Translations under genes and position numbers: made by a program
Notes under the pieces: model-generated
The model's database searches: none
What the model was told of the DNA's origin: nothing
The model's input: the letters and a program-made list of their open reading frames with translations, nothing else
Part shown: piece after piece, positions 6,575-29,383 of the stretch
Layout: each line of letters starts with the position of its first letter
Numbering within the stretch: position 1 is the stretch's first letter
NCBI GenBank assembly: GCA_003116975.1
Contig: BGKB01000030.1
Span: 313,399 to 377,398 of the forward strand
Direction: 5' to 3'
Length of the DNA: 64,000 nt
Source of the DNA: Aurantiochytrium sp. KH105
Taxonomy: Eukaryota; Sar; Bigyra; Thraustochytrida; Thraustochytriidae

Positions 6575-9136
6575 TTATTTGTATGGAAAATCGACAGGGA
6601 TGGAGGCAGCCGCCAGAAATGCTTCCGCAGAAGACTCAAATGCAAGGGGATCAGAGCCTTGGAGTTCCAAGGTCCAGGGGTCGTGACCATTATCGAGGGA
6701 ACGAGCCGCAGTATCATTCGTGCCTGGGTACAAGACCAAATCGCGTTTGAGGAGAATAGAAACTTCAAACGATTCCGTGTCGCCCGGGGCAAGAACGCCA
6801 GTGCGATGGAAAGTGTGTAACTTGCGAATAAGATCACCGTGGATCCCCGCATCTGCGGCGCTCCTTGGTGGGCGCAGATAGGCAAGAGACACATGCGCTC
6901 CAGCGTGACGACCCGTATTATGTACTTTGACAGTGAAGCAAGCGCTGTGCTTGGACTGCAGCTCGAATGGCCTGATCTCGTACGCGAACGTAGTGTATGA
7001 AAGGCCGTGGCCAAAAGGCAAGACTACAGGGCCCTTGTAAAAGCGATACGTACGCCCAGGGAAATCCTCCTCATCAGAAGGGTGCATGTCCATGCGGTCC
7101 ATGGGGACGCTTGAAATAAAAGACTCGGGATAAAAGGTCTGCGTGAGTCGACCGCTTGGGTTATTATCGCCAAAAACTGTCTCAGCGACCGCTGTCCCAC
7201 CCGACTGCCCAGGATACCCTGCCCACAGCACAGCGCCAACATGCTCGTCGGACAGAGTACTTGATAAGTCGATTGCGCCGCCGGCAACCACAACCACGAT
7301 CACGGGCGGTTTACCAGCAACGCGCGCAGCGCGCGCAACCCGTTTAACAAGCTCCTCTTGACGGCCGGGTAGACGAAGAGAGGTGCGGTCAAGGCCCTCG
7401 GCCTCCTGATCTTGGCCAATTCCAATCGCCAAAATTGTCTGCGCTGCCTGGCCTGCAGCCTCAACCGCAACATTAAAATCATGGTCATCTTGGTGCTCTT
7501 TGGTCACAGACGAGTCCAACGCGCATCCTTGAAAGACTTGCAGAGATTTGGCGTAAGCGTGGAGACCGTCTTCGATAGATACAAGAAAAGGGGCAACACC
7601 AAAGTAATTGCCCTGCAATGCTTTCGTGGAAGTTGCGTGCGGTCCAATGAGCGCCACAACGTCAGCCTTGGCCAGCGCGCGAGAGTCCAGAGGAAGTGCA
7701 TTTTGGGCATTTTTCAAAAGAATCATGCCTTGACGAGCGGCTTCGAGCGCCAGTGTTCGGTGCGCTGGGGTATCGATGGCCTCGGGGCCGATTCGTCGGA
7801 ATGGTTGCAGCTCATCGGCGTCGAAAATGCCGAGCCGAATTTGGACTTGAAAGAGATTTAGCAGCGCACGATCCACGAGATCTTCGGGCACCACTCCTTC
7901 TTGAACAGCGGCAACAAGATGTTGCGGAAGAAAGCCGCCACAGTCGATATCGACCTGTGCACGGAGCGTGTCGCTGACAATCTCCTCCTCTGTGTGATTC
8001 TGAAAGTGGAATTTATAGAACAAATTGTCCACGGCGCCACAATCGCCAGTAATGTAGCCCTGAAAACCCCACTTTTTGCGAGCAAGCTCGTCCATTAAAT
8101 TGCCGTTCACGCACGAAGGCACGCCGTTCATTGCATTGTAGCTACACATGAGCGCACTCACGCGTCCGTCCTTGACGCACCTCTCAAACGCAGGAAGATA
8201 TGTCTCGTGCAGATCTCGTGGAGACACGACCCCATTAAAGCTGAAACGATCATGCCCGTGCCAGTTCTCGATGCTATATGCTGCAAAGTGCTTGCAGCAC
8301 GCCGAATTCTTGAGTCGCGAGGGATCTGCCTCGTCCTCTTGAAAAGCGCGTACAAAATCTGCAGCGTACTGTCCGTTCACATACGGGTCTTCGCCCGGCG
8401 TTTCCTGGCCTCTGCCCCAACGCGGATCTCGAAACACATTAATGTTGGGTGTCCAATACGTAAGGGAGGCGCGACCGGCATTATTGAACGCTCGAGCTTC
8501 CGTTGAGATAGCTGCCGCGATTTTACGCACAAGTGTGCGATTCAGAGCCGCTGCGGTGGTCAAAACTTGGGGGAAGGAAGTTGCATGAGCGCAAGGTTCG
8601 ACAAACGCCACGCCAGGTGAATCTGCCACCCCATGTAAACCTTCGCTCCACCACTCGTAAAAGCTAATGTTCAGACGTGGTACCTCTTTTGCGTCATTGC
8701 CCATCAAAGAAGCCTTTTCATCTAGACGCAGGGCCTTGACGAGCGTCTGTGCTCGTCCTTCGACACTCAAACTACGATCGCACCATGGAAAAGGTGGCGG
8801 TGCATCCGCAGACGCTGCCAAGCACGGGTTCCACGTCTTGGGATGGCGTTGCTGGACTTGATGCCGATCTGTAGCCTGCTGCACCCCTTCTTTACCAGTG
8901 TTGGCACGAAGATTTTCAGCTCCAGTCCACGAGACTTTGTCCAGGTTCGCGCGAATATCGCTCCCCCCTCCCGCCACAATCGCAAACACCACGATGACGA
9001 CGACCGCCGCGACGCCAACGACCCCCACCCCAAACGTCCTTTTCTCCTCCTCCTCCTCCGCCTTCGCGAGCGGCGTTGGCACCGACGATCGCGGCGACGT
9101 TGGCGGCGCAGCCAGGGGCTCGCGCAGGGCCTGCAT
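6575..9136 (-). CDS. Glycoside hydrolase family 3 beta-xylosidase / alpha-arabinofuranosidase-like, membrane anchored
   Basis: An 853-residue single-exon protein. Residues 1-34 are a short charged tail, and 35-55 form one strongly hydrophobic helix, so the enzyme looks like a type II membrane protein with a luminal or extracellular catalytic part. The GH3 domain starts near residue 116 (PFPWCDRSLS) and contains the plant-BXL-like stretches WWSEGLHGV, TYWTPNINVFRDPRWGRGQE and TPGEDP. Asp365 in YITGDCGAV sits where the GH3 nucleophile is found. The second domain has the EAEGLDRTSLRLPG motif, followed by a fibronectin-III-like C-terminus. Expected activity is release of xylose or arabinose from oligosaccharides or glycoproteins; the exact sugar cannot be decided from sequence. 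It is head-to-head with an HPAT-like glycosyltransferase. GH3 beta-glucosidase is a less likely alternative. Confidence 0.92.
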   Translation of the reverse strand: MQALREPLAAPPTSPRSSVPTPLAKAEEEEEKRTFGVGVVGVAAVVVIVVFAIVAGGGSDIRANLDKVSWTGAENLRANTGKEGVQQATDRHQVQQRHPKTWNPCLAASADAPPPFPWCDRSLSVEGRAQTLVKALRLDEKASLMGNDAKEVPRLNISFYEWWSEGLHGVADSPGVAFVEPCAHATSFPQVLTTAAALNRTLVRKIAAAISTEARAFNNAGRASLTYWTPNINVFRDPRWGRGQETPGEDPYVNGQYAADFVRAFQEDEADPSRLKNSACCKHFAAYSIENWHGHDRFSFNGVVSPRDLHETYLPAFERCVKDGRVSALMCSYNAMNGVPSCVNGNLMDELARKKWGFQGYITGDCGAVDNLFYKFHFQNHTEEEIVSDTLRAQVDIDCGGFLPQHLVAAVQEGVVPEDLVDRALLNLFQVQIRLGIFDADELQPFRRIGPEAIDTPAHRTLALEAARQGMILLKNAQNALPLDSRALAKADVVALIGPHATSTKALQGNYFGVAPFLVSIEDGLHAYAKSLQVFQGCALDSSVTKEHQDDHDFNVAVEAAGQAAQTILAIGIGQDQEAEGLDRTSLRLPGRQEELVKRVARAARVAGKPPVIVVVVAGGAIDLSSTLSDEHVGAVLWAGYPGQSGGTAVAETVFGDNNPSGRLTQTFYPESFISSVPMDRMDMHPSDEEDFPGRTYRFYKGPVVLPFGHGLSYTTFAYEIRPFELQSKHSACFTVKVHNTGRHAGAHVSLAYLRPPRSAADAGIHGDLIRKLHTFHRTGVLAPGDTESFEVSILLKRDLVLYPGTNDTAARSLDNGHDPWTLELQGSDPLAFESSAEAFLAAASIPVDFPYK

Positions 9137-9624
9137 CTCTACTCGCCTCCGCGCGGCGGTCTGCGAGCGAGCGACGCCCCGAGCGAGGCTCGGTTCTGCA
9201 AAGATACTCCGTCCTGTCGCGCCAATGCCGCCTCGGCGAGCGCGCGTGCGGTGGCCAGCCCGCAGCCCGCGCAGCAGGGCCTCGCGAGCGAGCTGGCGTG
9301 CGAGCGAGCGGGCGGCCCCGTTCGGTTCTGCTGCGGCTGCGTGGCGTTGCGTGGCGTGGCGTTGCGCCGGCCGGAGTTGGTCGGCCTATCGCGCAGTCCT
9401 GCGAGCCTAGATGTATCTTCTTTCTCCTGGCAGGGCGCGGCTCGGCGAGCGAGGCGGGGGTCGGTCAACGGCGGCAAACCTCGAACAAGCAGCGCGCGAG
9501 CGGTGCCGTGCCCTCGCGCTGCGCTGCGCCGCGCCGCGTCTGCGTCGCGCATTGCGCTGCGCCGCGCCGCGCCGCGCCGCGCGCTTGCTCCTCGCGCCTC
9601 GCGCAGAGAGGACGCCGGAGGGAG
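9137..9624. promoter_or_regulatory. Shared divergent promoter region (GH3 enzyme / HPAT-like transferase)
   Basis: 488 bases between two outward-facing start codons. The sequence is very GC-rich, with many GCGAGCGAG clusters (about 9164-9320), a GGCGT-type run near 9340-9365 and a GCGCCGC-rich run near 9520-9590. No TATA box is visible. Long open frames here are side effects of the base composition. Confidence 0.55.
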
Positions 9625-11512
9625 ATGCAGCATCGACGCGGCGTCGTGGCCGGCGGCGGCAGCCGCGCAAGGTACAATGACCTGGAGGACCCCAAGTACG
9701 GAGAAAAGGGGAGACTCGTGGTGACGAAGCGAGGCCTCATGACGGCCATGGTTAGCATGGTCTGCCTCTGCGCCCTCTACCTCGTGGTGAACTCAGATGC
9801 GGCGGCCAGAGGAAGTGCGAGTGCCACCCTGGACAGAGCCGAAGTGGAGGGTCAGATTCTGGCCAGCCCACCACAGACGCACGGCAAACTGCGTAGCTTT
9901 GACAGCCTGCCGCCGCCAGAGTACAACAAACTCAGCTGGACGGGGCCCGATGGATCCCCCATGGGCTACGTGCGCATCCCCAAAATTCCCCCCGGCCAAA
10001 AGACGGGCGACGACGGTAAACTCCATGTCATCTTTTCTTCGGGATGCAATAACTTCCAGCATTGGCAGTCCGAACTGCTTCTTGCATCCGCTTACCTGGC
10101 AGGCCAACGCGGTCGCATCACGCGAATTGTCAGCGGCTGTCACGACAAGTCCGCAGAGACGGTGCGCCACCAGCATCAGACATTTCCGCAGGGTAAAAAC
10201 GACCTCCTTGTGCCCCTTGAAATCCTCAATCGCTCCGTTAACGAGAACTTTGGCCTTTACATTACGCCATCATTCGACGGCGCTCGCGACTTCCCGTGGA
10301 TCAACAAGGTAAGCTAAAAAGCGCCCTTTCCCTCCCCTTCTTTTGTTGTTCAAGAATGGGACGTTTTGGTGGGCTCCGATTTTTCCAAAAAACTAACAGT
10401 GAACCGCACTTCCAACCCCAAAACAAACCCAAGCCGTCTTCGATTCAATACTTTATGGAACACGCGAGACCCGAGCTAGATCGGCTCGGAGAAACGGTGA
10501 TTGCGATTCTGGACCCAGACTTTATCTTTCTCAAGCCTCTTACGCAGACCGGAGAGAGCCTCGATAACATTATTATATCGCGTGATATCGACAAGGATCG
10601 AGGCGTCCTGCCACCCATTGATGTCGTTCGCAAAGGCCGGCCTGTGGCGCAGCGCTATGGCCTGGAGAGCGGCTGGAAGGCGTCCAAGTTCGATCTTGAC
10701 GCCATCACAGGTGACCCAGACACTCCTGCAAAGACGTGGACGCACGAAATGGCGACAAAATACACTAGCGTTGGCCCGCCACTTATGCTTCATGTAGATG
10801 ATATCTCGCGTTTGAGCGTGCTCTGGGAAAAGTACATGCGACCGGTGCTGGCCATGGGTCCGAATATTCTCGCAGACATGTGGGCGTACTCGATTGGCGC
10901 GGCGCATTTGGACCTGCGGCACACGATTCTCGATCATTACATGATTTCCACCTGGGGAGATCGCGGTGAGGCCTTTTCTTGGGTCGACGCATGGCAAACC
11001 ATGTCGTGCAAGAATCCGCAACCCAAACCCGGCGACAAGATGCCAACCTTCATTCATCTTGCGTCTAACTACAAGGCCCCTGACGAGAAAGGGCCGTGGA
11101 TGTTCCACAAAGGCCACGTGCCTGCAACGTAAGTTTCTCGTTCTCCCCAAAGTCCGCGTGCGCTGCACGTTGTATGATCCACCAACTGACACCTTTATCT
11201 CCTGACGATAGCATTCTTGACTGTGACATGCCGCTTCTTGTCGAGGCTCCAGACGACCTGTTCGATGTCTCTCTCTCCAGACACCGCAGGCAAGCGGCCT
11301 GGGTGCTGTGCCACACCGTCGCCAAGATCAACCGTATCTTGCTCATGTACAAGCAAAAGTTTTGTCCAATTGGCTATGAGACTCGCAAGCTCGTTCGTCT
11401 CATTCAAAGAAAGACCCAAGACAGGTCATGTTCCGAGCGCACCGACAAGTGGTGCTTCCCTCTGGCCCAGATCGAGGGCCTCCCAGACAATTGGCGGGAT
11501 CATGCCATGTGA
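9625..11512 (+). CDS. HPAT/SGT1-like Golgi glycosyltransferase (three exons)
   Basis: Joining 9625-10308, 10434-11128 and 11212-11512 gives a 559-residue protein with a continuous frame. Introns are GT-AG, phase 0 and phase 2. The chosen ATG gives a 37-residue cytoplasmic tail, one transmembrane helix (about 38-56) and a luminal stem, as in type II Golgi enzymes; the upstream in-frame ATG would overlap the neighbouring gene. The catalytic part starts near residue 132 (VIFSSGCNNFQHWQ) and has a DxD-like motif at 255-257 (ILDPDFIFLKPL). These features match the family of plant hydroxyproline O-arabinosyltransferases and peptidyl-serine alpha-galactosyltransferases. Expected role is sugar transfer to Hyp or Ser of secreted proteins. 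Donor and acceptor cannot be assigned. Its partner across the promoter is a GH3 xylosidase-like enzyme. Confidence 0.82.
10309..10433 (+). other. Intron 1 of the HPAT-like gene
   Basis: 125 bases, donor AAG|GTAAGC and acceptor CCCAAG|CCG, with a branch-point-like CTAAC at about 10393. Removing it joins ...WINK to PSSIQYF in frame, in agreement with the family pattern 'INKP'. An AG at 10398-10399 would give an immediate stop and is unlikely to be used. Confidence 0.8.
11129..11211 (+). other. Intron 2 of the HPAT-like gene
   Basis: 83 bases, donor CAAC|GTAAGT and acceptor GATAG|CATT, with an ACTGAC branch-point-like sequence near 11184. Its removal joins HVPAT to ILDCDMPLL, restoring the frame that runs to the stop at 11510-11512. 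Confidence 0.8.
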
Positions 11513-11852
11513 TTTTAACTCTGCAAGTAAATCATCATCACTCGCGCAGCTTCTCATCTTCTTTTTCTTTTGGGGGGAACTTGATAGATTCAGAGATTTG
11601 CGATGCACGTTCTAATATTTCTTGATCACATTGTTTTACACAAACAAACACACTTGAATTGTGTTAGCGCACCCTCCCTAGCAGCCAGACAATTTCTATA
11701 CATGCATGTCGCAGGGCTGCGAGCCTGACTTGCTTGCTAGAATCCCGGAATACAATAAGTCTTGGGCAAAAAGAAAGAACAAACGAAACACACGACGCAG
11801 CATCTTATCGTGGTCGGGCCAATATCTCGACATCAAGCCCAATATCTCGACA
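11513..11852. other. Tail-to-tail intergenic region
   Basis: 340 bases between the stop of the HPAT-like gene and the stop of the TPS-TPP gene, which point toward each other. It is AT-richer than the flanking genes and contains only 3' flanking sequence. A 20-base tandem duplication spans its right end and the stop codon of the TPS-TPP gene. Confidence 0.6.
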
Positions 11853-11858
11853 TCAAGC
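11819..11858. repeat. 20-base tandem duplication over the TPS-TPP stop codon
   Basis: The unit 'ccaatatctcgacatcaagc' occurs twice with a 20-base period. On the minus strand the first-read copy holds the TGA stop (11853-11855) and the second lies just after it, so the duplication adds a second potential stop in the 3' UTR. Confidence 0.8.
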
Positions 11859-14800
11859 ACGGTCCTCTTCGCCGGAGGCACTGGCCAAGACTTCGAGCAC
11901 ATCCACGACACCATCCGTGTCGTTCACGTAATACTGCGCACCCGTCGGTTTGCGGCCCACGGTGCAGGTGAAAGCGTCTGCAAAGGTCCCTCCCTCGACA
12001 GCACCATTGTTGCTTTGGGACCCCAGAAAATCAAGTACTGCAGTATACATGCGCTCGTCCGAGGTATCATCGCCCACGCAAAAGCAAAATTGCGGGACAA
12101 AGTCTAGGTGAGCCTTGATCTCATCCAGGATATGGTGCACGGCCTCACCTTTGTCGACACCTTTTGGCAAGAGTTCCACGGTGTGTTTCTTGCGGCCCAC
12201 CACGACAGGAATATTCACGGCCATAATGGCCTCCTTGAGCTCGTTCTCGAGCTTGACAGCCTGCATCCCGCCCCATTCCGGGTCTGCCTGCCGGAATTGC
12301 CACGAGGCAGACACGGAAGTCTGTCGCCAGGCACTGCCACCAGTGCGCCACGTGTAGTCCTCCAAAATGCTCGGAACATCAGCCGCCTTCATCCAACTGT
12401 CCCAATCTTTATCCACGCCGGGAAGAATGAACTCCCAGCCATCCGAACCCACGGCGGCCGACGCCGAGACTGGCACAGCGGCTTGTGAGTCGGCGTCCTC
12501 ACCTTCGGCGTCGCCCTGGGTGTCATTGTCGGCATCGCTGTTTCCATCGTTCTCCTCCTCGTCGTCACCATCGTCGTCGTCATCGCCCGTGGCGCTGATC
12601 TGCAGGGCAGCCGGGACACTCCCTCCCGACTTGCGGCCTTCCACGGACAGACCTCCCCAGCGAATCATCATGCCAGAGTGCGCAACGAGGCCAAGCGATG
12701 AGCACGGGTCATCGAGAACCTCGGAAAAAGCCAAGCGCAGCACGCGCGTGCGATTCCCTGAAATTACAAAAACCACATTGCGCTTGTCGCTGCAGAGGCG
12801 ACGCAGAATGCGCGAGACGCGCGGTGAAAGCTTTCTCTTGGAAACGCCCAGAAAATCGCGCTTCACGGCTAGATTGCCAAGCTCACGCGGCGTCAGTGTT
12901 CCCGCATAATCAAGCAAAATGAGACGCTTCTCGCACCGTTTGTAGCTGCGCAAAATCTCAGTCGTGCTCAAGGCATGACAGAATCCCTCGTGCACAATGT
13001 TCTCAAAGGCCACCACGCTGTGATACTCGGATCCCTGCAAGATATCCTTGTCAATGCTCGTGAGTGCCTCGATCTGGCCCTGCACACCAAGCTCCACGTC
13101 CTGGAGAATATTGCGCGTCCACTCTGCCGACGAACGGTTCGAAATGTACGAGCAATCACGATCTCTACGCGCGTTGCGCTCTTCCGTCGTCATGCACAAA
13201 GCCTGATCCATGGCCTGCGACACCTCCTTGATATCGTAGCAATTGACGCGAATGGCGCCATTGAGCACGCGAGAGGCTGCTGAAAATTCAGACATAATCA
13301 CAACCCCTGCAGGGTCCCGGTGGCAAAATGTGTACTCGAGAGGCCGGAGATTCAGGCCCTCCATAACGGGCGTGCACACCATAATGTCTGCCGAGGCCCA
13401 AATCGCGGCGCGTTCCTCGACAGATGGCCAGTTGTGAGGCGCGTATTCCTTGTAAAAGACAACTGGGCCATACACGCGGTTAATACGCTCGCACAGCTGC
13501 TTTACCTCCGCAACAGCGCGCTCGATGCCATAATTCGTAATGATCTCCTCTTCCTCTTCCTCTTCCTCCTCGCCGTTGCCGTCCCCGTTGTCCTGTTCTG
13601 GCTTCGTCGTACCCTGACGACCTGGCCGCGAGCGATCTGCCATGGACATGAGTGTCTCGTTAAGAACGAGAAGGCCATGCTGAATGAGAACGACCTTGCC
13701 ACGGTACCGTGGACACTCGAGCAAGAGCCGCTCGAACGCGAGAAGTTTGAGGGGCACGCCCTGGAGACGTGTCATCTCGTCCATGGCAACAATGACTGTT
13801 TTGCCACGGTGCGCATTGCGGATAGTACCGGCGCCCTCTTGGCCCTTTCGCGAGAGAACTGCGCTGTCCAGTAAATGTTTCTCGACACCAACGTGGGAGA
13901 TGGCCACCAAAACGGCTCGGTCCATGTGATCCACCACGAGACGCCCGCCCTTTTGCGAGTGAAACTGAAGACCCAAAAAGCGCTTGCACGAGGTAATAAA
14001 GTGCCGCGCGTGATCAAACGTGTGGAAACCGACCACATCCGCGCCAAGCATGCCTTCGAGCAACTCGTTACGCACCGAGACAGTGCGAAAGATCTCGGAT
14101 GTTGGAAATGGAGTGTGCAAGAAAAACACAATCTTTGGCTGCATCTTGCGCGAGAGCCCGCTCGCGGCTGCACGCTCACGCAACAGCTCCGGGACCAACA
14201 TGAGTGGAAAGTTGTGCACCCAGACAAGATCCCGGCTGCTTACGTCCTTGAGGACGAGCTCCATGATTACGTCCGCAAAAATGTGCGAGGTCCGAATAAA
14301 ACCCACCCAGCGATCCCTCTTGGAATAGACCTCATCTGCGATTGAGCCATCGCTCGCCGTGCTGCTCCCACTTGCATAACGCTTGTATGGCCGAGGAGAA
14401 GCGCTCGTCTTGGAGGATCCTTTGGCAGATCGTTTCAGTCGTCGCATGTCTTCACGCGAAAGGTTAACGTTGAGAACATTATGAAAGATGTCGCGAAAAC
14501 GCATCAGACAGCTCCTTACATAGTGGTCCACAAAATCCTCGCGCGAGAGGAAGATTGGAACGCAGTCAAAAGCATGCAGCTTTGTGCGGATCTCCTCGCG
14601 ATCGGCTTCGTTCAAACGCCACACCAGCTCTGGATCCTCGTGTCGAATCACATACGGTGTAATCGCTCCCACCCACATTACTTCGTGGTCGTAGGCTACA
14701 GAGCCTTCAGACTTGCGCGAAATGCTGTCTGGGTTCCACTCTGCCGTCCATTTGTTGCCCTCTTCACCATGCTCGTTTGGGTAAATGTTCACTGGCAGAT

Positions 14801-15878
14801 TAAACGACACAAGAAACATGCGGTATTTGTGGGGAAGACCGACGTTCGACGAAACCGTTGGCGTGCTGGTGGGTAATTTGGCTGTTGTCGTCGCCAGCGT
14901 CTTGCTCACAGTGCTCGGCGGTGGCCACGCAGCGGCAGGGTCTTCCGCGTGCAGTGCGGGCGGCGGAGGGAGTGGTGGGACCACGGAGGTCTCGGGCAAA
15001 TTCACTGGCCTTGACGCAGGAGACCCCGCCGTTACAGCAGGCGTCGTGCTCGTGACCGAGGTCGCCGACTGCCCATCGGCAGACAGAGTTTCCCCAAAAG
15101 ACGGCAAGGTGTCGGGCGAAGAGGAAAGTTTTTGCGACGTTGAGCTCAAGTCAAAACGAACGTGCGGATGAATGTTACCTCGTGCCTTTCGCCCGGATCG
15201 CCCAAAGGCGGAAGGGGCGACGGGACGTTCAGAGGTCGACGTCGTTTGCTCTTGTTGCGCCATGGGATGTGCATCCTGACTTTGCTGCTCGCTCGAAGCA
15301 AGTTGCTTGGCGTCGACAAACGCGAGATCAGGAGTGATTCCAGAGGCCTGGCTGTTACTGTCTGAAAATCGATCCGCAGTGTCTTCGCCAGCAGCGAGCT
15401 TGCCTTGGTCCCCCGAAGTGGGCGCCCCTGCATGAATCGGGCCAATGGATTCGGGAATTTTTTCTGAGGCGCCGTCAAGCCCCGATACCCGAGCGACCAC
15501 GGGCTCGACGTGATCATCCAGCGCGTATTCCGCTTCATCGGGTTCCTCGTACATGCCGATTTCGTCAGTGACGGTCATTTCCCAACCTTCGGGTACAATG
15601 ACGCGGGCCTGGGCAGCGATTGGTTCCCAACCGTGAAACTGGCCTCCGCTCATGATCACATATTTGTACGAGAGCGGGAGTCCTCGCGGAAGATTTACAG
15701 GCCGACTTGTGCGCCAGATAGGGTACTCTTTAGGAGTCGTCACAAGGTCGACGCCCCGATTCGGGCTGAAAGAGCCGAGATTCACAGAGTCGCCGGTGAT
15801 GCGCACATTCTGGCCAATGTCTAGGTCTGCCTTCACCTTGAAGGTGATGCGCGTGAGATTCGGCATCTTTCCCTGCAC
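11853..15878 (-). CDS. CBM20-TPS-TPP fusion, class II-like, probable pseudoenzyme
   Basis: 1,341 residues, no introns. Residues about 5-115 form a CBM20 starch/glycogen-binding domain (ITFKVKADLDIGQNVRITGD, then the GWEP region). A low-complexity Ser/Pro/Thr linker runs to about 350. The GT20 trehalose-6-phosphate synthase domain (about 350-925) keeps FFLHTPFPTSEIFRT and VVGFHTFDHARHF. A HAD-type trehalose-phosphatase domain (from about 985) ends the protein. Key residues are changed: the UDP-glucose-binding Arg/Lys pair of GT20 aligns to Glu and Gln in VAMDEMTRLQGVPLKL, the Asp of DGMNL is Glu in MEGLNL, and the HAD motif DxDGT is LDYAGT, so the general acid/base Asp is Ala. GDDTSDERM is intact. 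Two acidic inserts are present. I infer a non-catalytic, glycan-binding regulator or trehalose-6-P/UDP-glucose sensor. Met5 is an alternative start. Confidence 0.9.
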   Translation of the reverse strand: MQGKMPNLTRITFKVKADLDIGQNVRITGDSVNLGSFSPNRGVDLVTTPKEYPIWRTSRPVNLPRGLPLSYKYVIMSGGQFHGWEPIAAQARVIVPEGWEMTVTDEIGMYEEPDEAEYALDDHVEPVVARVSGLDGASEKIPESIGPIHAGAPTSGDQGKLAAGEDTADRFSDSNSQASGITPDLAFVDAKQLASSEQQSQDAHPMAQQEQTTSTSERPVAPSAFGRSGRKARGNIHPHVRFDLSSTSQKLSSSPDTLPSFGETLSADGQSATSVTSTTPAVTAGSPASRPVNLPETSVVPPLPPPPALHAEDPAAAWPPPSTVSKTLATTTAKLPTSTPTVSSNVGLPHKYRMFLVSFNLPVNIYPNEHGEEGNKWTAEWNPDSISRKSEGSVAYDHEVMWVGAITPYVIRHEDPELVWRLNEADREEIRTKLHAFDCVPIFLSREDFVDHYVRSCLMRFRDIFHNVLNVNLSREDMRRLKRSAKGSSKTSASPRPYKRYASGSSTASDGSIADEVYSKRDRWVGFIRTSHIFADVIMELVLKDVSSRDLVWVHNFPLMLVPELLRERAAASGLSRKMQPKIVFFLHTPFPTSEIFRTVSVRNELLEGMLGADVVGFHTFDHARHFITSCKRFLGLQFHSQKGGRLVVDHMDRAVLVAISHVGVEKHLLDSAVLSRKGQEGAGTIRNAHRGKTVIVAMDEMTRLQGVPLKLLAFERLLLECPRYRGKVVLIQHGLLVLNETLMSMADRSRPGRQGTTKPEQDNGDGNGEEEEEEEEEIITNYGIERAVAEVKQLCERINRVYGPVVFYKEYAPHNWPSVEERAAIWASADIMVCTPVMEGLNLRPLEYTFCHRDPAGVVIMSEFSAASRVLNGAIRVNCYDIKEVSQAMDQALCMTTEERNARRDRDCSYISNRSSAEWTRNILQDVELGVQGQIEALTSIDKDILQGSEYHSVVAFENIVHEGFCHALSTTEILRSYKRCEKRLILLDYAGTLTPRELGNLAVKRDFLGVSKRKLSPRVSRILRRLCSDKRNVVFVISGNRTRVLRLAFSEVLDDPCSSLGLVAHSGMMIRWGGLSVEGRKSGGSVPAALQISATGDDDDDGDDEEENDGNSDADNDTQGDAEGEDADSQAAVPVSASAAVGSDGWEFILPGVDKDWDSWMKAADVPSILEDYTWRTGGSAWRQTSVSASWQFRQADPEWGGMQAVKLENELKEAIMAVNIPVVVGRKKHTVELLPKGVDKGEAVHHILDEIKAHLDFVPQFCFCVGDDTSDERMYTAVLDFLGSQSNNGAVEGGTFADAFTCTVGRKPTGAQYYVNDTDGVVDVLEVLASASGEEDRA

Positions 15879-20725: not shown

Positions 20726-23700
20726 TTAGAGTCCAGCTTCGAGCATGTCGGCGGCGAGCTCCAGCAAGACTGTATTATCTGAGCCCTTCTTCTTCTCCTT
20801 GCGAGCTCCGCGCTTGCCCGAATGGTCGTAGAAGTATTCGGAAAGACGAGACTTGCGCCTGTCGAGCGTGGACCCCTGGTTGCTGTCGTCGTCATCGTGG
20901 GCGTCGCCGGGTTCCACATCAGTGCCATCAGCTTGGTCGCTCACGGTGTCCGAGTTATGTCCGAAGCGAATGAGAATGTACGGGAAGAGCGCGTAGCGCA
21001 AAAAGAAGATGGTTGGCTCCGCCACAACGTAGCCAATGATGATACCAGATGCTGCCGTGCCGAGCCATATGAGAAGAATTTCATTTTCTGCCGCGCCAGA
21101 CCCAACACGATCCGCGCGCGTAAGCACGAAACGAGTTACATAAAAGGCGGAGAAAGCGTAGAAGCAGAACATGATGAACCAGGCCACGTACTTGAAGGCA
21201 GCGCCCAGCATAGGTCGGCGGGGCTTGCCGACAACCTGTGCCTCATCCGAAAGAAGAGCTGTGACACGCATAATGGCGCTCTTTTGCTTCCGAACACGAT
21301 TAATGCGCGCAATCGCGTCCTCGGTTCGCAGCGTACGCCACTCCGCGTTCGCATTGCGCGTACGCTGGAGTAGCGCCAGTTTCGCCTCTCGATGCTCATT
21401 AAGAGCGTCTTCCAGGCTAGTCTGCAGCTCCTCGAGGGAACGAACCTCAATCGCCTGCTCCGAGTCCGTCTCGCCACCCCCAGGCGATCCAGGTACCAGA
21501 GCGGCGGCCTCGACCGCTGCTTGGCTTGTGATGGCTGGCGTCTGTCGCTTGGCGAGGCGGATTTGGGCGCGAAGGGAAGCCACCTGGGCTTTGGCGCGGA
21601 AAACGCGGTTGTAGCACAAGAGGAGAGCTACTTCCGACTCGTCCATGGGACGCTCCTCGATATGCGAGAGCGCCTCAAAGGCGGTGCTCACGCGAGAACC
21701 ACGAGAACCCTCCTGCAAGTCTGAGATGCGGAAGAGTGCTTTGACAAAGACGCGAATCGGGATGGAAACGAAGAGCGAACACATGATGATGGTGCCAAAG
21801 AGGAAGCCAGTCGACACATCTTCGGCGGTCTTGAGCTCGAAAAAGATGGAAGCAGCAAGGGCGTTGCCCATGCAAATGGCCACAAAGACCGAGACCCGCT
21901 GCATTCGGCTGTAGTGAGCGTCGTACTTGATGAGACCAAGAAGACTGTGCTCGTAAACAATGGCAAGGAAGAAGTTCTTGCAGATCGAACGGTTGAACAG
22001 GGGCCGCGGGCGGTGCGGGTTGGCCTGCAGGTCCTTGTAAGAGTCCAGGTCGCTGACATTTTGCTGGTCACGAACCATGGCCTTGAGATTCTCAAAGAAT
22101 CTGCGCTGCTGCGATCGCGCTTGCATGCGGCGCAAGTACATCATGCCAATGGCGCCCTTTTGAATCGAGTTGGCATCGGTCTTGTCTCGTCGGTTCGCCC
22201 ACCACAGACCGACAATCCAGACGAAGAATATCGATGGGAACAACACACCGAGAAGGAGCAGAGCAATGGATGTGACAGAGGTAATTGGATCCGAAAACGT
22301 TTGACGCACATCGTCCGTGAACGCGTGCCATACCGCATAGTCGGAGGCATGGTTGCAGACACAGGTCACGAAACTGTCAGGATCCGTCTGGTTGCCAGAG
22401 AGCTCGCACCCCGACGTGGACCATTCATTCGTGTCTGGATCAAAGAAGCCGCACACCAGTTCCGTAGCATTCTCCACATCTTCGCAAAGGTCCGCATCCA
22501 GGACGTCGTTGCGCGGAACTTGGATGGTGATGCCCTCGTCCAGTCCGCTCGGGTCAAAGCGGCGCTCCGGGTCGCTCGTATCAACAAAGTCGAGAGAAAC
22601 CACGTCCGTCACTTCAGACACAGGGCCCGTGTACTGGACGATCTCGGAAGTAAGGTTGCACTCGTCCTCGCTGTTTCCGTCTGCATCGATGAGGGTCACG
22701 TTGAAAACAACCTCGCAGCGGATGTTCATGCTGTAGGATACCGCAATGAGATCAATCTCCGAGGGGGCATCCGCGTCGCCAAAGTCCATGCCGCTCACAA
22801 TATCGGCCGGGAGCACAAACGAGCCTCGCGAGCTTGAAGAGCTCGACGACGTGGTGTTACTCGACGCGCTCTTACCGGTCTTTGATCCAGGAAGCGCCAC
22901 AGAAGACAGACCATCGCCGCCTTCACTGCCCGTTCCAAGGGCAGACGTGCTCTCGCGGGCCGTCGCCAATTGAATGCCCGAAGATTGAAACTGGCGCGCC
23001 GCGGCGCCCTCGGCGTAATTTTGCAAAGACAACCGTGCTAGCTCCTCAATTGTACTACGCGTGAGAGAAACGATTCCGCACGAAGCCTCATCTGACAACA
23101 TGCGCGCGCGTCCAGAGAGCCGACGAGCTGAAGATTCGACAGTTTCGCGCGCCGCTGCAAGAATGCGCGTGAGACTTTCGAGCGTGTTGTCCTGCACCGA
23201 CGAAGGCAAGATGCCGACTGCTGCCGGGTCGTCCTCGGCTCGTCGGTTCGCGATGATTGTCTGGTTCGCCTGGTCGATGAAATCACGAAGCAAAGAAATG
23301 CTCTGGTCCTGGAAGTCGGTGTCGATGGTCGACGCCTCACCGCTCACGAGAGTGAGCAGCAGGTTGATCTGCAAAGAGACCATGAACGGGTCTTCACGCT
23401 CCGTTACGTTGACACCTTGCAGGTAGCCCAAGGCTGCATTCCGGGTCGACGTAGCCCAGGCCTCGAGGTTCTCGACGTTGCTTCCCGCGGCAGAATTGAC
23501 AAGTGACCCGAGGGAAATGGCAGCGCGCAGGAGGTCCTCCTCCTTTCCGCCCTCTGCCGTGACGTTCTGCAGCTCATTCACAAAGTCAGGGGGAGCCCAC
23601 AAGGGGCTCTTGATCGGATTCTGAAGCGTAATGGCGAGAAAGTTTACTCGCTGGCTCTCTGCACCAAGCGCGTCACGCGCAACCACCGTGATGTACATCG

Positions 23701-26700
23701 TGGCGCTCCCGTTTACCCCGGCAGCGGCAGCTGGGAGCTCGAGCGAGGTCCGAAGCGTCGGGCTCGCAGAGAATGGACCAAGCGAATAGGTATCTTCGGG
23801 ACGAAGGATACCGGTCGGCTTTTGGAACGTGTACTCGAAGGAATAGGTCAATGGCGTATTGTCGTCGCTAAATCCCGTTGCGACAAAGGTAAAGTCGGTA
23901 TCGTACGCGAATCCGGTCGTGAGCGCCGACGAAACGTAGCCATTCGATGGCGGTTTGTTCACTGTAAAGGTGACCTGAGCAAAGGGATGATTATTGCTGC
24001 TTTCGGAGCACTCTTGACGCGCTGTGAGACGAAAGGTATACGTGGTCCCGGGAGTGAGAGACGCCTTGGACAAGACCAACTGAGGCCGACTGACCACGCT
24101 GGCAAAGCTTGTTGCGCTCTGCGCGACAAGCGTGCCGGCATCGTCTGTGACCATGCGCTGCCAGATCAGCTTCACTGTGTTTGTCGAAGCTCCGGGAACG
24201 TAGTTGCTGACAGACCCCTTGAGCACGACGCCAGCGTTTGGAACTGTGAGCACCGGATCCACTGGAGCAATGGACACCGAGGGGATCACCGCACACGCAA
24301 TGGTAGGCCGGACTTCAATAGTGACAACCTTGCTCGCTTGCCCGTTCACTGTGGCCGTAAAATAGTACTGAATGCCCGCTACAAGTGTGTTGCTTGGCAT
24401 TGTCCATACAAGAGAAGTGCTTGCCGGGAGACTCAGTCCGCACGCCACGTTGTCAGATCGCGAGCAGGACCAGACAACCACTGGAGTTGAAAGGAAAGGT
24501 GTCAAGGCTGCCGCAGATCCAGCGGTTGCGCCAAATACCGGGTCGCAACCCACCGCGGCTGCGGGGTTGCAGCTGCGCGAGAAGTCGACGTTGAGAATCT
24601 CATTGCGGAAGATGGCACGGTAAAAGCCGCCGGTCGGAACTAGAGCCAGCTCGGGAGCATTGATGACCAGGTCGATTTCATCGTGCGCCTCGACTGAAGG
24701 CGAGTCCTTGACGCGAGTTGTGACCCGAAGTTTGAACGAGCCCACAGGAAATCTGTCAACCGCAAACTTTCGATAGGCCGACGAAGTGTATCCGTTCAGA
24801 GTGTTCGACGTAATCCAGTTGTCGCTGCTATATGTCCAAGCATACTCGTACGTCGTTGTTGGAAGGCCACATGTAAACTGCGTCGTGGCGTCCACAGTCA
24901 CACGTGTTACGCCGCGTGTCGCGACCAGCGGCGAAGCAGACTCGATGCTGATGGTGGGAATGTCCTCCGTAGCGACAGAAAAACTCCAGTACGCAATTGT
25001 AGAGATCTCGCCCAGCCAATTTGTTGCTTGGGCCGATGCCTCGTAAGACGCACCAGCGACAATGCCAGCATCCGTGAAGGAATACTCAAAGAGCGGTGAG
25101 GTCAGACCAGAGGCACTGAACACGGTAGCTTCGGATGTAGTATCATCAATTTGGAGAGTCCATGTTAAAGCTCGACCTGCAGCCCCGCTAGTTGCCAGGC
25201 CCGTAAGAGACAAGGTCTCCCCGCAAGGCGATACCTCTGAGACGCCACGCAGCGAAATTTGAGGAATTGGATACGCGCTAGCTCCCCACGACACAATGAG
25301 CGTTCCAGAGACTTCGGGTGAATATCCAGTCGCTGCCCGGATTCCATTACCAGCGAGGAAAGAGAGCTCGTCGTTAAGAGAGACTGTGCTCTGCGCGCTC
25401 AATGACACAAATAGTACCGTCGAGCTCGTCCAGTAACAAACACTATCCGATGCAGCCTCACTGGAGATGACGAAAATCTCTGCACACTCAACAACACCCG
25501 AGACGACGGATCCGAGCACCTGATTCGAAGGTGCATCAAAGGTAATTTCGATGCCTGTGCCATCTTCCGAAAAGTTGGCAGAAAGAGGGACGGGCGCGAT
25601 GGCAGTGTACAGCGATCCCGGGACCTCTTCCGTACGGCTCATGACTGCATCAAAATCGTATACAGTGACAGAACCATACGTGTCCGTGTCCGGGTCGAGC
25701 TGTACGACTGTGCCAGCAGCCGTCCTGTGCGCTTCGTTCCACAAAGTTCCCTGACCCGCGACAGAGTCCTGCGTGCATGTCACATTTGCAGACGCCTCAA
25801 AACAGAAGTCTTCCTCTCCCGTGTTACACGTGCAGGTTGAGTTTGCTGCCACAAAGGAGGCGCAAATAGCGTCACACCCTTCTGGCGTCGTCGGGTAATA
25901 TGGTACGTAAGTTTCGCTTCCGTTGACAAAGATATATATGTCGTATCCCGTGCAGGGGTACTCGAGAACGTTCCATTCGCAATATCCTGCATTTGTGCTC
26001 TCGCTGTATGAGGGCACGTAATCACCACAGGTTGGACACGAATCGCTGCTGATATCGCAAGACATTGGGGTAACTGAGCGTTCTTCACTCGAACGACCGC
26101 CATCGTTGCTGCAGCATTTGTTAAGAGTATCGTTGATGTCGATATAGGCATAAGGGAGATGCGCAGGACACGCCGAGGCAGTCAGGTTGACCTCGACAGT
26201 CAAGGTATAAGATTGTCGAAGCTCATCGAATCCAGTATCCTCTGGACAAGTATAAGTGCCAACACTTGGCTCCGTGCAGACATCCGTGGCCTGAAAGCAC
26301 TCGTAGTCCAGCGGGAGAGTCGGGTCGTATGGATGGACGCCAAGCGAATATCCGCATTCAGCCATACATGATTCGAGTGCGCTCACGTATTGGAGACCGG
26401 CCCCGTCGACGTAGCTATATTGTGCATGAAACTCTCCACCATAAACTATGGTGTTCGCCGTCTGGTACCCAACGCATACGGCATAGTCGCAGCTGATATG
26501 CTTCCCAATGGCCGTAGAGCAGTTTGTCGCAGACGTATAAGGATCGTATGTAGAGCCATAAGAAGAGCACTGGGGCAGTGTGAGGTTTGCGAAGCTTTCT
26601 TCGCATTCAGTGACGGATAGACCGTCATTGCAGGTCGTATCGTATGGGGAATTGGAATAGCAGTACACCTGAGAATCACTGAAGAGTGAGTCAATGGTCT

Positions 26701-29383
26701 GGAAAAAAACAGGAAGGCACGCGAGAAGGAGTTCTTCGGTGAGAGCTGGGACTTCCAGCGGCGCCGAGACACCGTCTGCAAGGACGAGATCAAAGAGGAG
26801 GCGGCGCACAGAAAGCAGCGAAAAGCGGTCGTCGAGCTCGAGACAAAGCTCTGGTGGGGCAATCGTGTCGCGCCACACGAAGGCGTCGAAAATGTAAGAG
26901 AACTCTCCCAAGCCTGTCGTCTCGCTTCCGTCATCGCTGTCGCCAAAGATGCTCGCAATGGGAGTACTAAAGTCGAAGCAAAAAGAGTCTTCGGCAGTCC
27001 CGGGGCAGGTATCGAGCAAGGTGTCTGCGCAGGTGCTAACGCCGTCAACGACGCCTTGAATAAAGGGCGCGACGAGGGCGACCTTGAGCTGCGACAGCTC
27101 AGAGGCCCCATTCTCGGAATCACATGTGTCAATCTCCACAGCGACGTCGAACTGGCTCACGCCGAAAGGCTCTGCGAGCGAAATCTCGAATCGAACTGGC
27201 GACGAGGGACCAGAAAGAAGATTCTCCACATTAAGGCTTTCGGCATTTGAAAACGTAAGCGGCTCAGAGTTCTCAAACTTGTAACCGAGTGTGGCATTTC
27301 CACGAGAGCTGATGTAGTCCCCGGGCATGAGGGCTCCAAGCCAAAAAGCAGGTTTCCAAAAGTCAAACGCCACCGTTGCATTGTCGCCAGCGAGAGCGGA
27401 CCAATTGCTGCCGCAGTCGTCCATCTGACGAATCGCGTTCTTGAGATGTGTCAAGGTCGAGTTCAGGTTCGGCATTGCAACAGCGACGGAAAGGAAGGGG
27501 TTGAAAAGGTTTGCGACGATGGTCCCGTCGCACAATGTATAGAGAATATTCGAGTCCGCAGGCGCAATGTCGGGTGTAAAGTGTGAGTTACCATCCTTGT
27601 CAAAGGTCGCCGGGTCGAGCGCCAAGGGGGAGACGAGGCCAGCTTGAGGAACTCCCGTCGTTAACGTGGCAAGAGGGCACGTCTCGAACGTAGGTCTCGG
27701 GCCGCAAAGCGCTTCATCTTCCGGGAACTCTCCGGCGATGGTCCAAGTGATCGCGTAATCGAATGGATAATCCCAACACTCGGAAACGTTCACCGGTGAT
27801 GCGCATGTGCAGAGCCTCTGCCGCGCCACGCTTTCGTCGCCATCGGCGCAGTCAAAGAGAACATTCCCGTTGCTATCGATGCTCGTGGCGCTAAAAAGGA
27901 CTGTCCCATTTACAATACCCCCCTCTGCCGTTTGCTCGCCGTTGATCGTGCAAAACCATTCGGGCCCGGAAGTTGCAGGTGGTTTTTCGCCACAGGCAGC
28001 AAACGCATCGTATTCAGAAAGGGTAGAGTTCGTGTCCACCGCACAGACATCTGCTGAGGGCTGTGCAGCAGGGAAAACGTCAAGGTACGAGGAGGAGGAG
28101 GAGTAGGTTGAAAAGCTCGCAATGAAGAAGCCATCGTAGGAGGTTTTGTTGCAGGTTGAGTAATCAGAACCGCTGACGCATTCGCAATTTGCACACTCAT
28201 TGCCATCGTAGAGGCACTCGGGAACATTGCACTTTGGATTGCAGTAGCCGTCGCCGAGGTGGCTGGGGTGGCATCCTAGACTCGCACAGTAACCAATGTC
28301 GAATCCAGGAAGAACCATTGCCGTGTCGGTGATTTCCGTCTTCACCTCGGTCGCGCTGAATGGGGGTGAGATCAGACCCAGAAGTGCATCCAGCGTACTT
28401 TCCGAGGAGGATGAGGAGCTGCCATCGCCCCCGTCGTACTCATCGTACCCACCATCATCGACGATGAGGTCACGCGCGATGCTGGCCAAGTCGTAGAAAG
28501 TCGGCGTGCATGTACGCATATCGAAGAGAAGACCAGGTTCTGCCTCAAGGCCGAAGATACCCAGAAGGATCTCGTCCGCGAAGACGGGCAGCTGGATCTC
28601 CCTACCGGCAGTGGCGCAGGTGGCGTCGTCGCCAACAGTGAAGCCGAGGTCGGCCATGAGCGCGATAGCATCTTCGGTGGTGTTGCCAAAGAAGCCTTTG
28701 CATGACTGAAATTCAGAAGTGCAGTCGGCGTCAGAATCGCAAGGCTGCACCAGCACCTGATCGCAGTCGGTGCCCTCACAGTCAATTGAGATGAAGGGCC
28801 AGGTGATTGAATCTTCGCAGCGGTCAATGACCACATTGAGCACGGTTGACTCGCTCTTCACCCACGTACTGTTGACCATGCCATTGAGCGTAAGCTGGCA
28901 GCCCTGTCCATTTTGAAGCGATTGATACGAGCACGTGCTCGGCAGTTCCACGCCGCTGAGCTTGGCCCCATCGATCACGGGAAAAGCCGAGCTTATTGCG
29001 GAGAAGACAGCCTGCACGCCGCTATCTGTGCCCGCGCAAGAGTTTTCAAAGGCGGAATCGTCCAGCGTGTACCCGCCGTTGCCGTCGTCCTGGTGTGCGA
29101 GCGCGGCGACGAAGAAGTCTGCCGAGGGCACGAAGCGGCGGATGAGCTCCGCGTCGGGCGCCTCTCCGCACGCGCACCGCGCGCGTTCGAGCCACTGCTC
29201 GCCCAGCAGGTTCGCCGCCGCCTTGAGGCTCGCCAGGTTCACGTGCGTCTCCAGCGGCAGGCCCTCGAGCACGTGCAGGCCTCCCTGGCAGTCCAGCGTC
29301 AGGATGTTCTCGCCGCGCGCGGGCGCCGCCAGCGCGGCCACCACCGCCGCCACCACCGCCAGCGCCGCCGCCGCCGCCCGCAT
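20726..29383 (-). CDS. Polycystin-1-like protein: LNR, REJ, GPS and five membrane helices
   Basis: The open frame continues upstream to 29485, but the ATG at 29383 starts a clear signal peptide (MRAAAAALAVVAAVVAALAA), so I use it; the protein is then 2,885 residues. A Notch/LNR-like Cys module lies near residue 370-410 (GDGYCNPKCNVPECLYDGNEC). Many Cys-rich extracellular stretches follow, then a REJ-type region (about 1690-1930), a GAIN-like region and a GPS (about 2340, TCVCNHASDYAVW). Membrane helices follow: one right after the GPS, a pair (about 2475-2550, beginning YEHSLLGLIKYDAHYSRMQR, very like polycystin-1 TM2-TM3) and a pair (about 2727-2800). The PLAT domain normally between TM1 and TM2 is absent, and so is the six-helix channel half. 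Expected role is mechanosensing, adhesion or gamete recognition at the surface. Inference: a regulatory polycystin without a pore. Confidence 0.85.
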   Translation of the reverse strand: MRAAAAALAVVAAVVAALAAPARGENILTLDCQGGLHVLEGLPLETHVNLASLKAAANLLGEQWLERARCACGEAPDAELIRRFVPSADFFVAALAHQDDGNGGYTLDDSAFENSCAGTDSGVQAVFSAISSAFPVIDGAKLSGVELPSTCSYQSLQNGQGCQLTLNGMVNSTWVKSESTVLNVVIDRCEDSITWPFISIDCEGTDCDQVLVQPCDSDADCTSEFQSCKGFFGNTTEDAIALMADLGFTVGDDATCATAGREIQLPVFADEILLGIFGLEAEPGLLFDMRTCTPTFYDLASIARDLIVDDGGYDEYDGGDGSSSSSSESTLDALLGLISPPFSATEVKTEITDTAMVLPGFDIGYCASLGCHPSHLGDGYCNPKCNVPECLYDGNECANCECVSGSDYSTCNKTSYDGFFIASFSTYSSSSSYLDVFPAAQPSADVCAVDTNSTLSEYDAFAACGEKPPATSGPEWFCTINGEQTAEGGIVNGTVLFSATSIDSNGNVLFDCADGDESVARQRLCTCASPVNVSECWDYPFDYAITWTIAGEFPEDEALCGPRPTFETCPLATLTTGVPQAGLVSPLALDPATFDKDGNSHFTPDIAPADSNILYTLCDGTIVANLFNPFLSVAVAMPNLNSTLTHLKNAIRQMDDCGSNWSALAGDNATVAFDFWKPAFWLGALMPGDYISSRGNATLGYKFENSEPLTFSNAESLNVENLLSGPSSPVRFEISLAEPFGVSQFDVAVEIDTCDSENGASELSQLKVALVAPFIQGVVDGVSTCADTLLDTCPGTAEDSFCFDFSTPIASIFGDSDDGSETTGLGEFSYIFDAFVWRDTIAPPELCLELDDRFSLLSVRRLLFDLVLADGVSAPLEVPALTEELLLACLPVFFQTIDSLFSDSQVYCYSNSPYDTTCNDGLSVTECEESFANLTLPQCSSYGSTYDPYTSATNCSTAIGKHISCDYAVCVGYQTANTIVYGGEFHAQYSYVDGAGLQYVSALESCMAECGYSLGVHPYDPTLPLDYECFQATDVCTEPSVGTYTCPEDTGFDELRQSYTLTVEVNLTASACPAHLPYAYIDINDTLNKCCSNDGGRSSEERSVTPMSCDISSDSCPTCGDYVPSYSESTNAGYCEWNVLEYPCTGYDIYIFVNGSETYVPYYPTTPEGCDAICASFVAANSTCTCNTGEEDFCFEASANVTCTQDSVAGQGTLWNEAHRTAAGTVVQLDPDTDTYGSVTVYDFDAVMSRTEEVPGSLYTAIAPVPLSANFSEDGTGIEITFDAPSNQVLGSVVSGVVECAEIFVISSEAASDSVCYWTSSTVLFVSLSAQSTVSLNDELSFLAGNGIRAATGYSPEVSGTLIVSWGASAYPIPQISLRGVSEVSPCGETLSLTGLATSGAAGRALTWTLQIDDTTSEATVFSASGLTSPLFEYSFTDAGIVAGASYEASAQATNWLGEISTIAYWSFSVATEDIPTISIESASPLVATRGVTRVTVDATTQFTCGLPTTTYEYAWTYSSDNWITSNTLNGYTSSAYRKFAVDRFPVGSFKLRVTTRVKDSPSVEAHDEIDLVINAPELALVPTGGFYRAIFRNEILNVDFSRSCNPAAAVGCDPVFGATAGSAAALTPFLSTPVVVWSCSRSDNVACGLSLPASTSLVWTMPSNTLVAGIQYYFTATVNGQASKVVTIEVRPTIACAVIPSVSIAPVDPVLTVPNAGVVLKGSVSNYVPGASTNTVKLIWQRMVTDDAGTLVAQSATSFASVVSRPQLVLSKASLTPGTTYTFRLTARQECSESSNNHPFAQVTFTVNKPPSNGYVSSALTTGFAYDTDFTFVATGFSDDNTPLTYSFEYTFQKPTGILRPEDTYSLGPFSASPTLRTSLELPAAAAGVNGSATMYITVVARDALGAESQRVNFLAITLQNPIKSPLWAPPDFVNELQNVTAEGGKEEDLLRAAISLGSLVNSAAGSNVENLEAWATSTRNAALGYLQGVNVTEREDPFMVSLQINLLLTLVSGEASTIDTDFQDQSISLLRDFIDQANQTIIANRRAEDDPAAVGILPSSVQDNTLESLTRILAAARETVESSARRLSGRARMLSDEASCGIVSLTRSTIEELARLSLQNYAEGAAARQFQSSGIQLATARESTSALGTGSEGGDGLSSVALPGSKTGKSASSNTTSSSSSSSRGSFVLPADIVSGMDFGDADAPSEIDLIAVSYSMNIRCEVVFNVTLIDADGNSEDECNLTSEIVQYTGPVSEVTDVVSLDFVDTSDPERRFDPSGLDEGITIQVPRNDVLDADLCEDVENATELVCGFFDPDTNEWSTSGCELSGNQTDPDSFVTCVCNHASDYAVWHAFTDDVRQTFSDPITSVTSIALLLLGVLFPSIFFVWIVGLWWANRRDKTDANSIQKGAIGMMYLRRMQARSQQRRFFENLKAMVRDQQNVSDLDSYKDLQANPHRPRPLFNRSICKNFFLAIVYEHSLLGLIKYDAHYSRMQRVSVFVAICMGNALAASIFFELKTAEDVSTGFLFGTIIMCSLFVSIPIRVFVKALFRISDLQEGSRGSRVSTAFEALSHIEERPMDESEVALLLCYNRVFRAKAQVASLRAQIRLAKRQTPAITSQAAVEAAALVPGSPGGGETDSEQAIEVRSLEELQTSLEDALNEHREAKLALLQRTRNANAEWRTLRTEDAIARINRVRKQKSAIMRVTALLSDEAQVVGKPRRPMLGAAFKYVAWFIMFCFYAFSAFYVTRFVLTRADRVGSGAAENEILLIWLGTAASGIIIGYVVAEPTIFFLRYALFPYILIRFGHNSDTVSDQADGTDVEPGDAHDDDDSNQGSTLDRRKSRLSEYFYDHSGKRGARKEKKKGSDNTVLLELAADMLEAGL

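What the first reader, a model, noticed from the sequence alone, without database searches (positions are those of the whole stretch)
11853..15878. Starch-binding TPS-TPP fusion that looks doubly dead
Both halves carry substitutions at catalytic positions. In GT20 the Arg/Lys pair that binds the UDP-glucose phosphates is Glu/Gln, the N-terminal VSNRLPV signature is VSFNLPV, and DGMNL is EGLNL. In the HAD phosphatase DxDGT is DYAGT, removing the acid/base Asp while GDD is intact. An intact CBM20 suggests recruitment to storage glucan. A conserved, glucan-bound pseudo-TPS/TPP would be a sugar-status sensor, comparable in idea to plant class II TPS but more degenerate.
Basis: partly seen in the sequence, partly recalled or inferred. 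Interest (0 to 1): 0.72.

Follow-up and report, generated by a model that had tools for sequence, protein, structure and literature searches.

The report
Conserved dead trehalose-enzyme fusion, starch-binding
This protist gene encodes a protein built like a two-step trehalose-making enzyme with a starch-binding end, but catalytic residues of both steps are altered while evolution still guards the sequence, so it is probably a regulator rather than an enzyme.

Summary
A single-exon ORF (11853-15866, minus, 1337 aa) encodes CBM20-GT20-TPP. Against 76 prokaryotic homologues and E. coli OtsA it has R9N, G22S, D130N, R262E, K267Q and D361E; in the phosphatase half the acid/base Asp is Ala, while the nucleophile Asp, Ser, Lys and GDDxxDE are kept.

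Three such loci, each in two near-identical copies (taken as haplotypes), were found in the genome, and no other GT20 or TPP gene. All three have R262E and lose R9, G22 and the acid/base Asp (A/S/G). It is not decay: between copies the window GT20 domain has 25 synonymous and 0 amino-acid changes, the whole gene 72 and 12.

R9 loss, G22S and R262-to-acidic match published plant class II TPS (PMC9079074, PMC4203130), and CBM20-TPS-TPP proteins are known in red algae, a diatom, a brown alga and Toxoplasma (PMC6642608, PMC11414933). So: a known kind, degenerated further. New is the uniform acid/base loss where no intact TPS or TPP was found. Best reading: glucan-tethered pseudoenzyme, probably a scaffold. 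The window protein is a poor trehalose-6-phosphate sensor; paralog C a better one. Alpha-glucan and trehalase genes could not be searched.

The parts
11853..15866 (-). single-exon ORF, 1337 aa, CBM20-linker-GT20(TPS)-HAD(TPP)
   Evidence: same ORF on contig C140 (L011), 1325 of 1337 residues identical
15585..15854 (-). CBM20 starch-binding domain, residues 5-94; LGSF (W to F), SYKYV and GWEP kept
   Evidence: Pfam E 1.7e-14; PDB CBM20 alignments
13077..14831 (-). GT20 (TPS-like) domain, residues about 346-930
   Evidence: Pfam; AlphaFold2 model of residues 336-1337, mean pLDDT 77.4, best Foldseek match C. albicans Tps1 5hvl_B, TMt 0.89
14790..14810 (-). VSFNLPV in place of VSNRLPV (R9 lost)
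13758..13781 (-). DEMTRLQG: R262 to E, K267 to Q
   Evidence: E at R262 in all three paralogs
13347..13361 (-). EGLNL in place of DGMNL (D361 to E); E369 just downstream kept
11916..12989 (-). HAD phosphatase (TPP-like) domain, residues about 960-1317, with an acidic insert
   Evidence: Pfam
12897..12914 (-). LDYAGT: nucleophile Asp kept, acid/base Asp is Ala
   Evidence: DYSGT and DYGGT in the two paralogs
12054..12074 (-). GDDTSDE, Mg2+ motif kept

Best explanation
A class-II-like pseudo-TPS-TPP. It folds as a TPS-TPP fusion but makes and hydrolyses no trehalose-6-phosphate. The CBM20 probably places it on alpha-glucan, and the GT20 and HAD folds act as protein-binding, and perhaps ligand-binding, platforms that adjust partner proteins of carbon storage or energy signalling. 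Shown here: domain order, residue losses, recurrence in three loci, purifying selection. Inferred: loss of both activities. Inferred and weaker: glucan tethering and regulation of partners.
For: Losses at R9, G22, D130, R262, K267 and D361, where 75 or 76 of 76 prokaryotic homologues agree. Acid/base Asp lost; replacing it abolished detectable activity in Brugia malayi T6PP (PMC4081830 passages). No decay: in the window gene 72 synonymous and 12 nonsynonymous differences between the two copies, GT20 domain 25 and 0, CBM20 8 and 0, TPP 21 and 3; one neighbouring exon gives 14 and 1. Complete TPS fold predicted. Shared class II signature with plant proteins reported inactive and associated with SnRK1 subunits (PMC12589705 passages; PMC9079074, PMC4203130 passages). 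In Toxoplasma, mutating a phosphosite of a CBM20-TPS-TPP protein changes amylopectin staining under bradyzoite-inducing conditions (PMC11414933 passages).
Against: No activity, binding or localisation data. A red-algal CBM20-TPS-TPP (PhTPS4) with the R262 equivalent changed to D, the G22 equivalent to K and the R300 equivalent deleted (my mapping) is reported to take part in (iso)floridoside synthesis (PMC6642608 passages), so such losses do not by themselves prove inactivity. The CBM20 has W to F at one binding position. Whether this organism stores alpha-glucan is untested, and stramenopiles, if it is one, mostly lack it (PMC5608401 passages).
Confidence: 0.62

Rival explanations
1. A re-specialised glycosyltransferase, for example a hexosyl-glycerol-phosphate synthase like that reported for red algal PhTPS4, with altered donor and acceptor.
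For: Same CBM20-TPS-TPP order; PhTPS4 has R to D at the R262 position, G to K at the G22 position and lacks the R300 residue, yet is reported active (PMC6642608 passages; position mapping mine). H154 and E369 are kept here. Strong purifying selection on the GT20 domain.
Against: The window protein has also lost D130 and D361, which PhTPS4 keeps, and R9 and K267, for which the passages name no change in PhTPS4. The paired phosphatase lacks its acid/base Asp.
Confidence: 0.15
2. A non-catalytic subunit of a trehalose synthase complex, like yeast Tsl1/Tps3 or Aspergillus TslA.
For: [quoted passage not shown]
Against: No catalytic GT20 or TPP partner was found: all 6 GT20-bearing ORFs (3 loci, 2 copies) are degenerate. 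The six-frame exon-by-exon search could miss a gene cut into short exons.
Confidence: 0.1
3. A direct trehalose-6-phosphate sensor through the phosphatase fold.
For: Nucleophile, Ser, Lys and Mg2+ motif are kept, so a phosphate could bind without turnover.
Against: R67, E131, K133 and H140 equivalents are replaced in the window protein; paralog C keeps R67, E131, K133, R142 and E180 (H140 is Q) and fits better (mapping mine). No T6P synthase was found.
Confidence: 0.08
4. A decaying pseudogene or assembly artefact.
For: Many catalytic losses.
Against: Open in both copies; pN/pS 0.05 overall and 0 in the GT20 domain; full fold predicted.
Confidence: 0.02

Closest known systems
Plant class II TPS (AtTPS5-11 and grass homologues)
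   Same: TPS-TPP fusion; R9 lost, G22 to S, R262 to an acidic residue (PMC9079074 Table 3, where the Arg is printed R162; PMC4203130, where it is R391; mapping mine); reported catalytically inactive
   Different: Sugarcane class II keeps D130, the D361 equivalent and both TPP aspartates; this protein loses D130, D361 and the second Asp, and has an N-terminal CBM20
CBM20-TPS-TPP proteins of red algae, Phaeodactylum and Saccharina (PhTPS4 group)
   Same: Domain order; acidic residue at R262; PhTPS4 placed close to plant class II in PMC6642608
   Different: PhTPS4 keeps D130, H154, D361, E369 and is reported active on other substrates; its TPP motif was not seen here
Toxoplasma TGME49_297720
   Same: CBM20-TPS-TPP; linked to storage glucan levels (PMC11414933)
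   Different: Its catalytic residues were not compared here; its authors think it may be bifunctional
Fungal Tsl1/Tps3, TslA/TslB
   Same: Doubly degenerate TPS-TPP with regulatory roles (PMC5405227)
   Different: They work beside active TPS and TPP and, as far as I recall, have no CBM20; no active partner was found here

Membership tests
GT20 trehalose-6-phosphate synthase (catalytic) | R9, G22, R262, K267, D361 present | tested here: not met
   N, S, E, Q, E at these positions
HAD trehalose-6-phosphate phosphatase (catalytic) | DxDGT with both aspartates | tested here: not met
   DYAGT; D at the second position in 72 of 74 prokaryotic ORFs
HAD superfamily fold | Nucleophile Asp, motif II Ser/Thr, motif III Lys, motif IV GDDxxD | tested here: met
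   all four present; Pfam Trehalose_PPase 110.9 bits over a cut-off of 27
Class II TPS | TPS-TPP fusion with R9 lost, G22 to S, R262 to acidic | tested here: met
   N, S, E (the G22 stretch aligns less surely); signature from PMC9079074 and PMC4203130 passages
Class II TPS | branches with class II in a tree holding plant and algal sequences | not testable with these tools
   no eukaryotic collection on hand; the tree holds only prokaryotic rows and A, B, C
Class II TPS | conserved phosphatase aspartates, usual in plant class II | tested here: not met
   A, S, G at the second Asp in the three paralogs
CBM20 | Pfam CBM_20 above cut-off | tested here: met
   53.8 bits, cut-off 23.3
CBM20 | two Trp and a Lys of the glucan site (W32, K87, W99 in laforin, PMC8703398 passages) | tested here: inconclusive
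   F, K, W by alignment to PDB CBM20s; the mapping onto laforin numbers is recalled
Fungal Tsl1/Tps3 regulators | works with catalytic TPS and TPP subunits | tested here: not met
   none found in the genome, within the limits of an exon-wise search

The most novel reading that the evidence does not exclude
An organism with no working trehalose-6-phosphate synthase or phosphatase keeps three class-II-like pseudo-TPS-TPPs under strong selection. Each phosphatase fold keeps its nucleophile and Mg2+ motif but lacks the acid/base residue needed for turnover, so it could hold a sugar phosphate, or a long-lived phospho-aspartate, as a switch. Two of the three carry CBM20; the third has a hydrophobic C-terminal tail that may anchor it to a membrane. 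The class II signalling part of the trehalose system would thus outlive the metabolite it is thought to read.
Probability: 0.2. Interest if true: 0.75.

Novelty: new variant of a known kind. Interest (0 to 1): 0.48.

Why it matters
What catalytically inactive class II TPS proteins do is an open question in plant sugar signalling. A unicellular organism in which only such proteins were found, with no active TPS in the background, would let their function be tested without confounding trehalose-6-phosphate synthesis. It also warns that GT20/TPP annotation alone should not be read as trehalose synthesis.

Tried and rejected
Decay was considered and rejected on comparison of the two copies. Membership in catalytic TPS or TPP was rejected on residues. 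Viral relatives: two scans of viral contigs found none. Rfam found nothing in the window at gathering scores. AMPK/SnRK1-like motifs were counted: 2 in the window protein against a shuffle mean of 1.7, so nothing. The R300 column could not be aligned with confidence in the window protein.

Not done: alpha-glucan phosphorylase (PF00343), trehalase (PF01204) and 18S rRNA (RF01960) in the whole genome. The genome search answered busy, and the fetch from genomes. I repeated the requests and waited in between with idle scripts. The neighbour-gene control meant for one search was run on a shorter stretch already held, L011.
Full report
What is there. The window lies in an assembly of 76.0 Mb in 367 contigs; size and gene content make it a eukaryote (inference). 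The finding is one open reading frame on the minus strand, 11853-15866 from the first ATG, 1337 residues. Pfam gives CBM_20 at 5-94, Glyco_transf_20 and Trehalose_PPase, each over its cut-off. The same frame is open on contig C140, 1325 of 1337 residues identical.

Three loci. A search of the genome with the GT20 profile found 12 matches in six ORFs, which pair up as three loci of two near-identical copies each: A (C30, the window, and C140), B (C146 and C42) and C (C181 and C70). I take the copies as haplotypes; homeologues are not excluded. The TPP profile matches at the same three loci only, and CBM20 at A and C only. These searches read six frames exon by exon and score only the best candidates; a gene cut into short exons could be missed, and the completeness of the assembly is not given.

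Catalytic residues of the GT20 half. Positions in published OtsA numbering; states in A/B/C: R9 N/V/F (R in 76 of 76); G22 S/P/S (G in 76 of 76; A, B and C align less surely here); D130 N/D/G (D in 76 of 76; a search pattern ran over this column but allowed D, N or G); R262 E/E/E (R in 76 of 76); K267 Q/R/R (K in 75 of 76, one R); D361 E/V/S (D in 75 of 76, one gap). H154 and E369 are kept in all three. The second copies differ from the first at none of these positions (amino-acid differences). Of 81 columns conserved in at least 95% of the 76, A, B and C keep 50, 50 and 51; OtsA keeps 66, so part of the divergence is not catalytic.

Catalytic residues of the phosphatase half. Against the 74 ORFs longer than 700 aa and OtsB: nucleophile Asp kept in all three; acid/base Asp A/S/G (D in 72 of 74; one N, one G); motif II Ser kept; motif III Lys K/R/K; GDDxxDE kept. 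In Brugia malayi T6PP replacing either aspartate abolished detectable activity, and the second Asp gives its main-chain oxygen to Mg2+ (PMC4081830, passages). So the Mg2+ and phosphate site may survive while turnover should not. Residues that bind T6P in C. albicans Tps2 (list in PMC9079074 Table 3, passages; positions matched by me through), states in A/B/C: R67 N/D/R, E131 R/W/E, K133 T/S/K, H140 Q/N/Q, R142 R/V/R, E180 E/T/E. Paralog C could still bind T6P; A and B much less likely.

Selection. Between the two copies (own Nei-Gojobori count): A 72 synonymous and 12 nonsynonymous (CBM20 8/0, linker 18/9, GT20 25/0, TPP 21/3); B 71 and 7; C 72 and 15. One neighbouring exon, a weak hydroxyproline-arabinosyltransferase match below Pfam's cut-off, gives 14 and 1 over 226 codons. 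The altered domains are about as constrained as that one neighbour. This is one pair of copies per locus.

Structure. An AlphaFold2 model of residues 336-1337, with 42 related sequences in the alignment, has mean pLDDT 77.4 and pTM 0.69; linkers and the acidic insert are low. Foldseek's best match is C. albicans Tps1 (5hvl_B, E 3.7e-34, TMt 0.89). No coordinates were at hand, so pocket geometry was not examined.

CBM20. Aligned to PDB CBM20s (1ac0 and cyclodextrin glucanotransferases), the LGxW Trp is Phe in A, while the Lys and the second Trp are kept. In C these read Gly, Arg, Trp (by eye). The site is plausible in A and doubtful in C.

Kinship. In a tree of 40 rows (36 of the 72 ORFs of 700-860 aa, OtsA, A, B, C) the three form one group, 100/100, but on long branches and without any other eukaryote. 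In plant class II TPS, R9 becomes Q/T/F/M, G22 becomes S and the R262 equivalent becomes D (PMC9079074, passages, where the Arg is printed R162; PMC4203130, passages, which reports Arg to Asp in all maize class II; mapping mine). A, B and C share that signature in kind. Sugarcane class II keeps D130, the D361 equivalent and both TPP aspartates; A, B and C all lose D361 and the second Asp. The CBM20-TPS-TPP order is described for red algae, Phaeodactylum and Saccharina (PMC6642608, passages) and for Toxoplasma, where changing Ser1073 to Ala or Asp lowers or raises amylopectin staining at pH 8.2 (PMC11414933, passages). Doubly degenerate TPS-TPP regulators are known in fungi (PMC5405227, passages).

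Mechanism. Most likely the protein is a scaffold: CBM20 for address, GT20 and HAD folds for partners and perhaps for a phosphorylated ligand. Plant class II proteins associate with SnRK1 subunits and several are phosphorylated by SnRK1 (PMC12589705, passages). The step from sequence to regulation is inference. Results against this reading: PhTPS4 is reported active with Asp at the R262 position, and stramenopiles other than Blastocystis and Cafeteria are reported to lack alpha-glucan genes (PMC5608401, passages), which would remove the CBM20's natural ligand if this organism is one. The organism was not identified, and the genome searches for alpha-glucan and trehalase genes did not complete.

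Novelty. A new variant of a known kind. In the listings of nine paper searches (open-licence papers only) and the passages I read of 13 papers I met no description of such proteins with DY[A/S/G]GT. Few of those searches named the motif, so this is weak evidence of absence, and relatives in other protists may share it.

Noticed in passing
L009:1774-5595 (+), paralog B: Lacks CBM20 and ends in a hydrophobic stretch (NFKLLLAGLAGASFTFVFL, Kyte-Doolittle mean 1.58 over 19 residues), a possible weak tail anchor; plant class II TPS5/8/9 are reported in cytosol and ER (PMC12589705).
   Followed up: partly
L012:1960-6606 (-), paralog C: CBM20-TPS-TPP that keeps most T6P-binding residues of the phosphatase half but has DYGGT; the best candidate of the three for a non-hydrolysing T6P binder.
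   Followed up: partly
window 6575-9385 (-): Glycosyl hydrolase family 3 protein (Pfam) beside the finding.
   Followed up: no
window 20726-29497 (-): Single frame of 2923 aa with Notch/LNR, REJ and GPS domains (Pfam), polycystin-like by eye.
   Followed up: no
window 33191-47365 (-): Single open frame of 4724 aa that reads like a dynein heavy chain (recognised by eye, not searched).
   Followed up: no
window 11200-11850 against L011: The two copies differ by 3.6% over 631 intergenic positions but by about 7.5% at synonymous sites of the adjacent gene; the reverse of the usual expectation, unexplained.
   Followed up: no
L027-L106: 2 of 74 prokaryotic ORFs also lack the second Asp of DxDGT (one N, one G); possible pseudophosphatases.
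   Followed up: no
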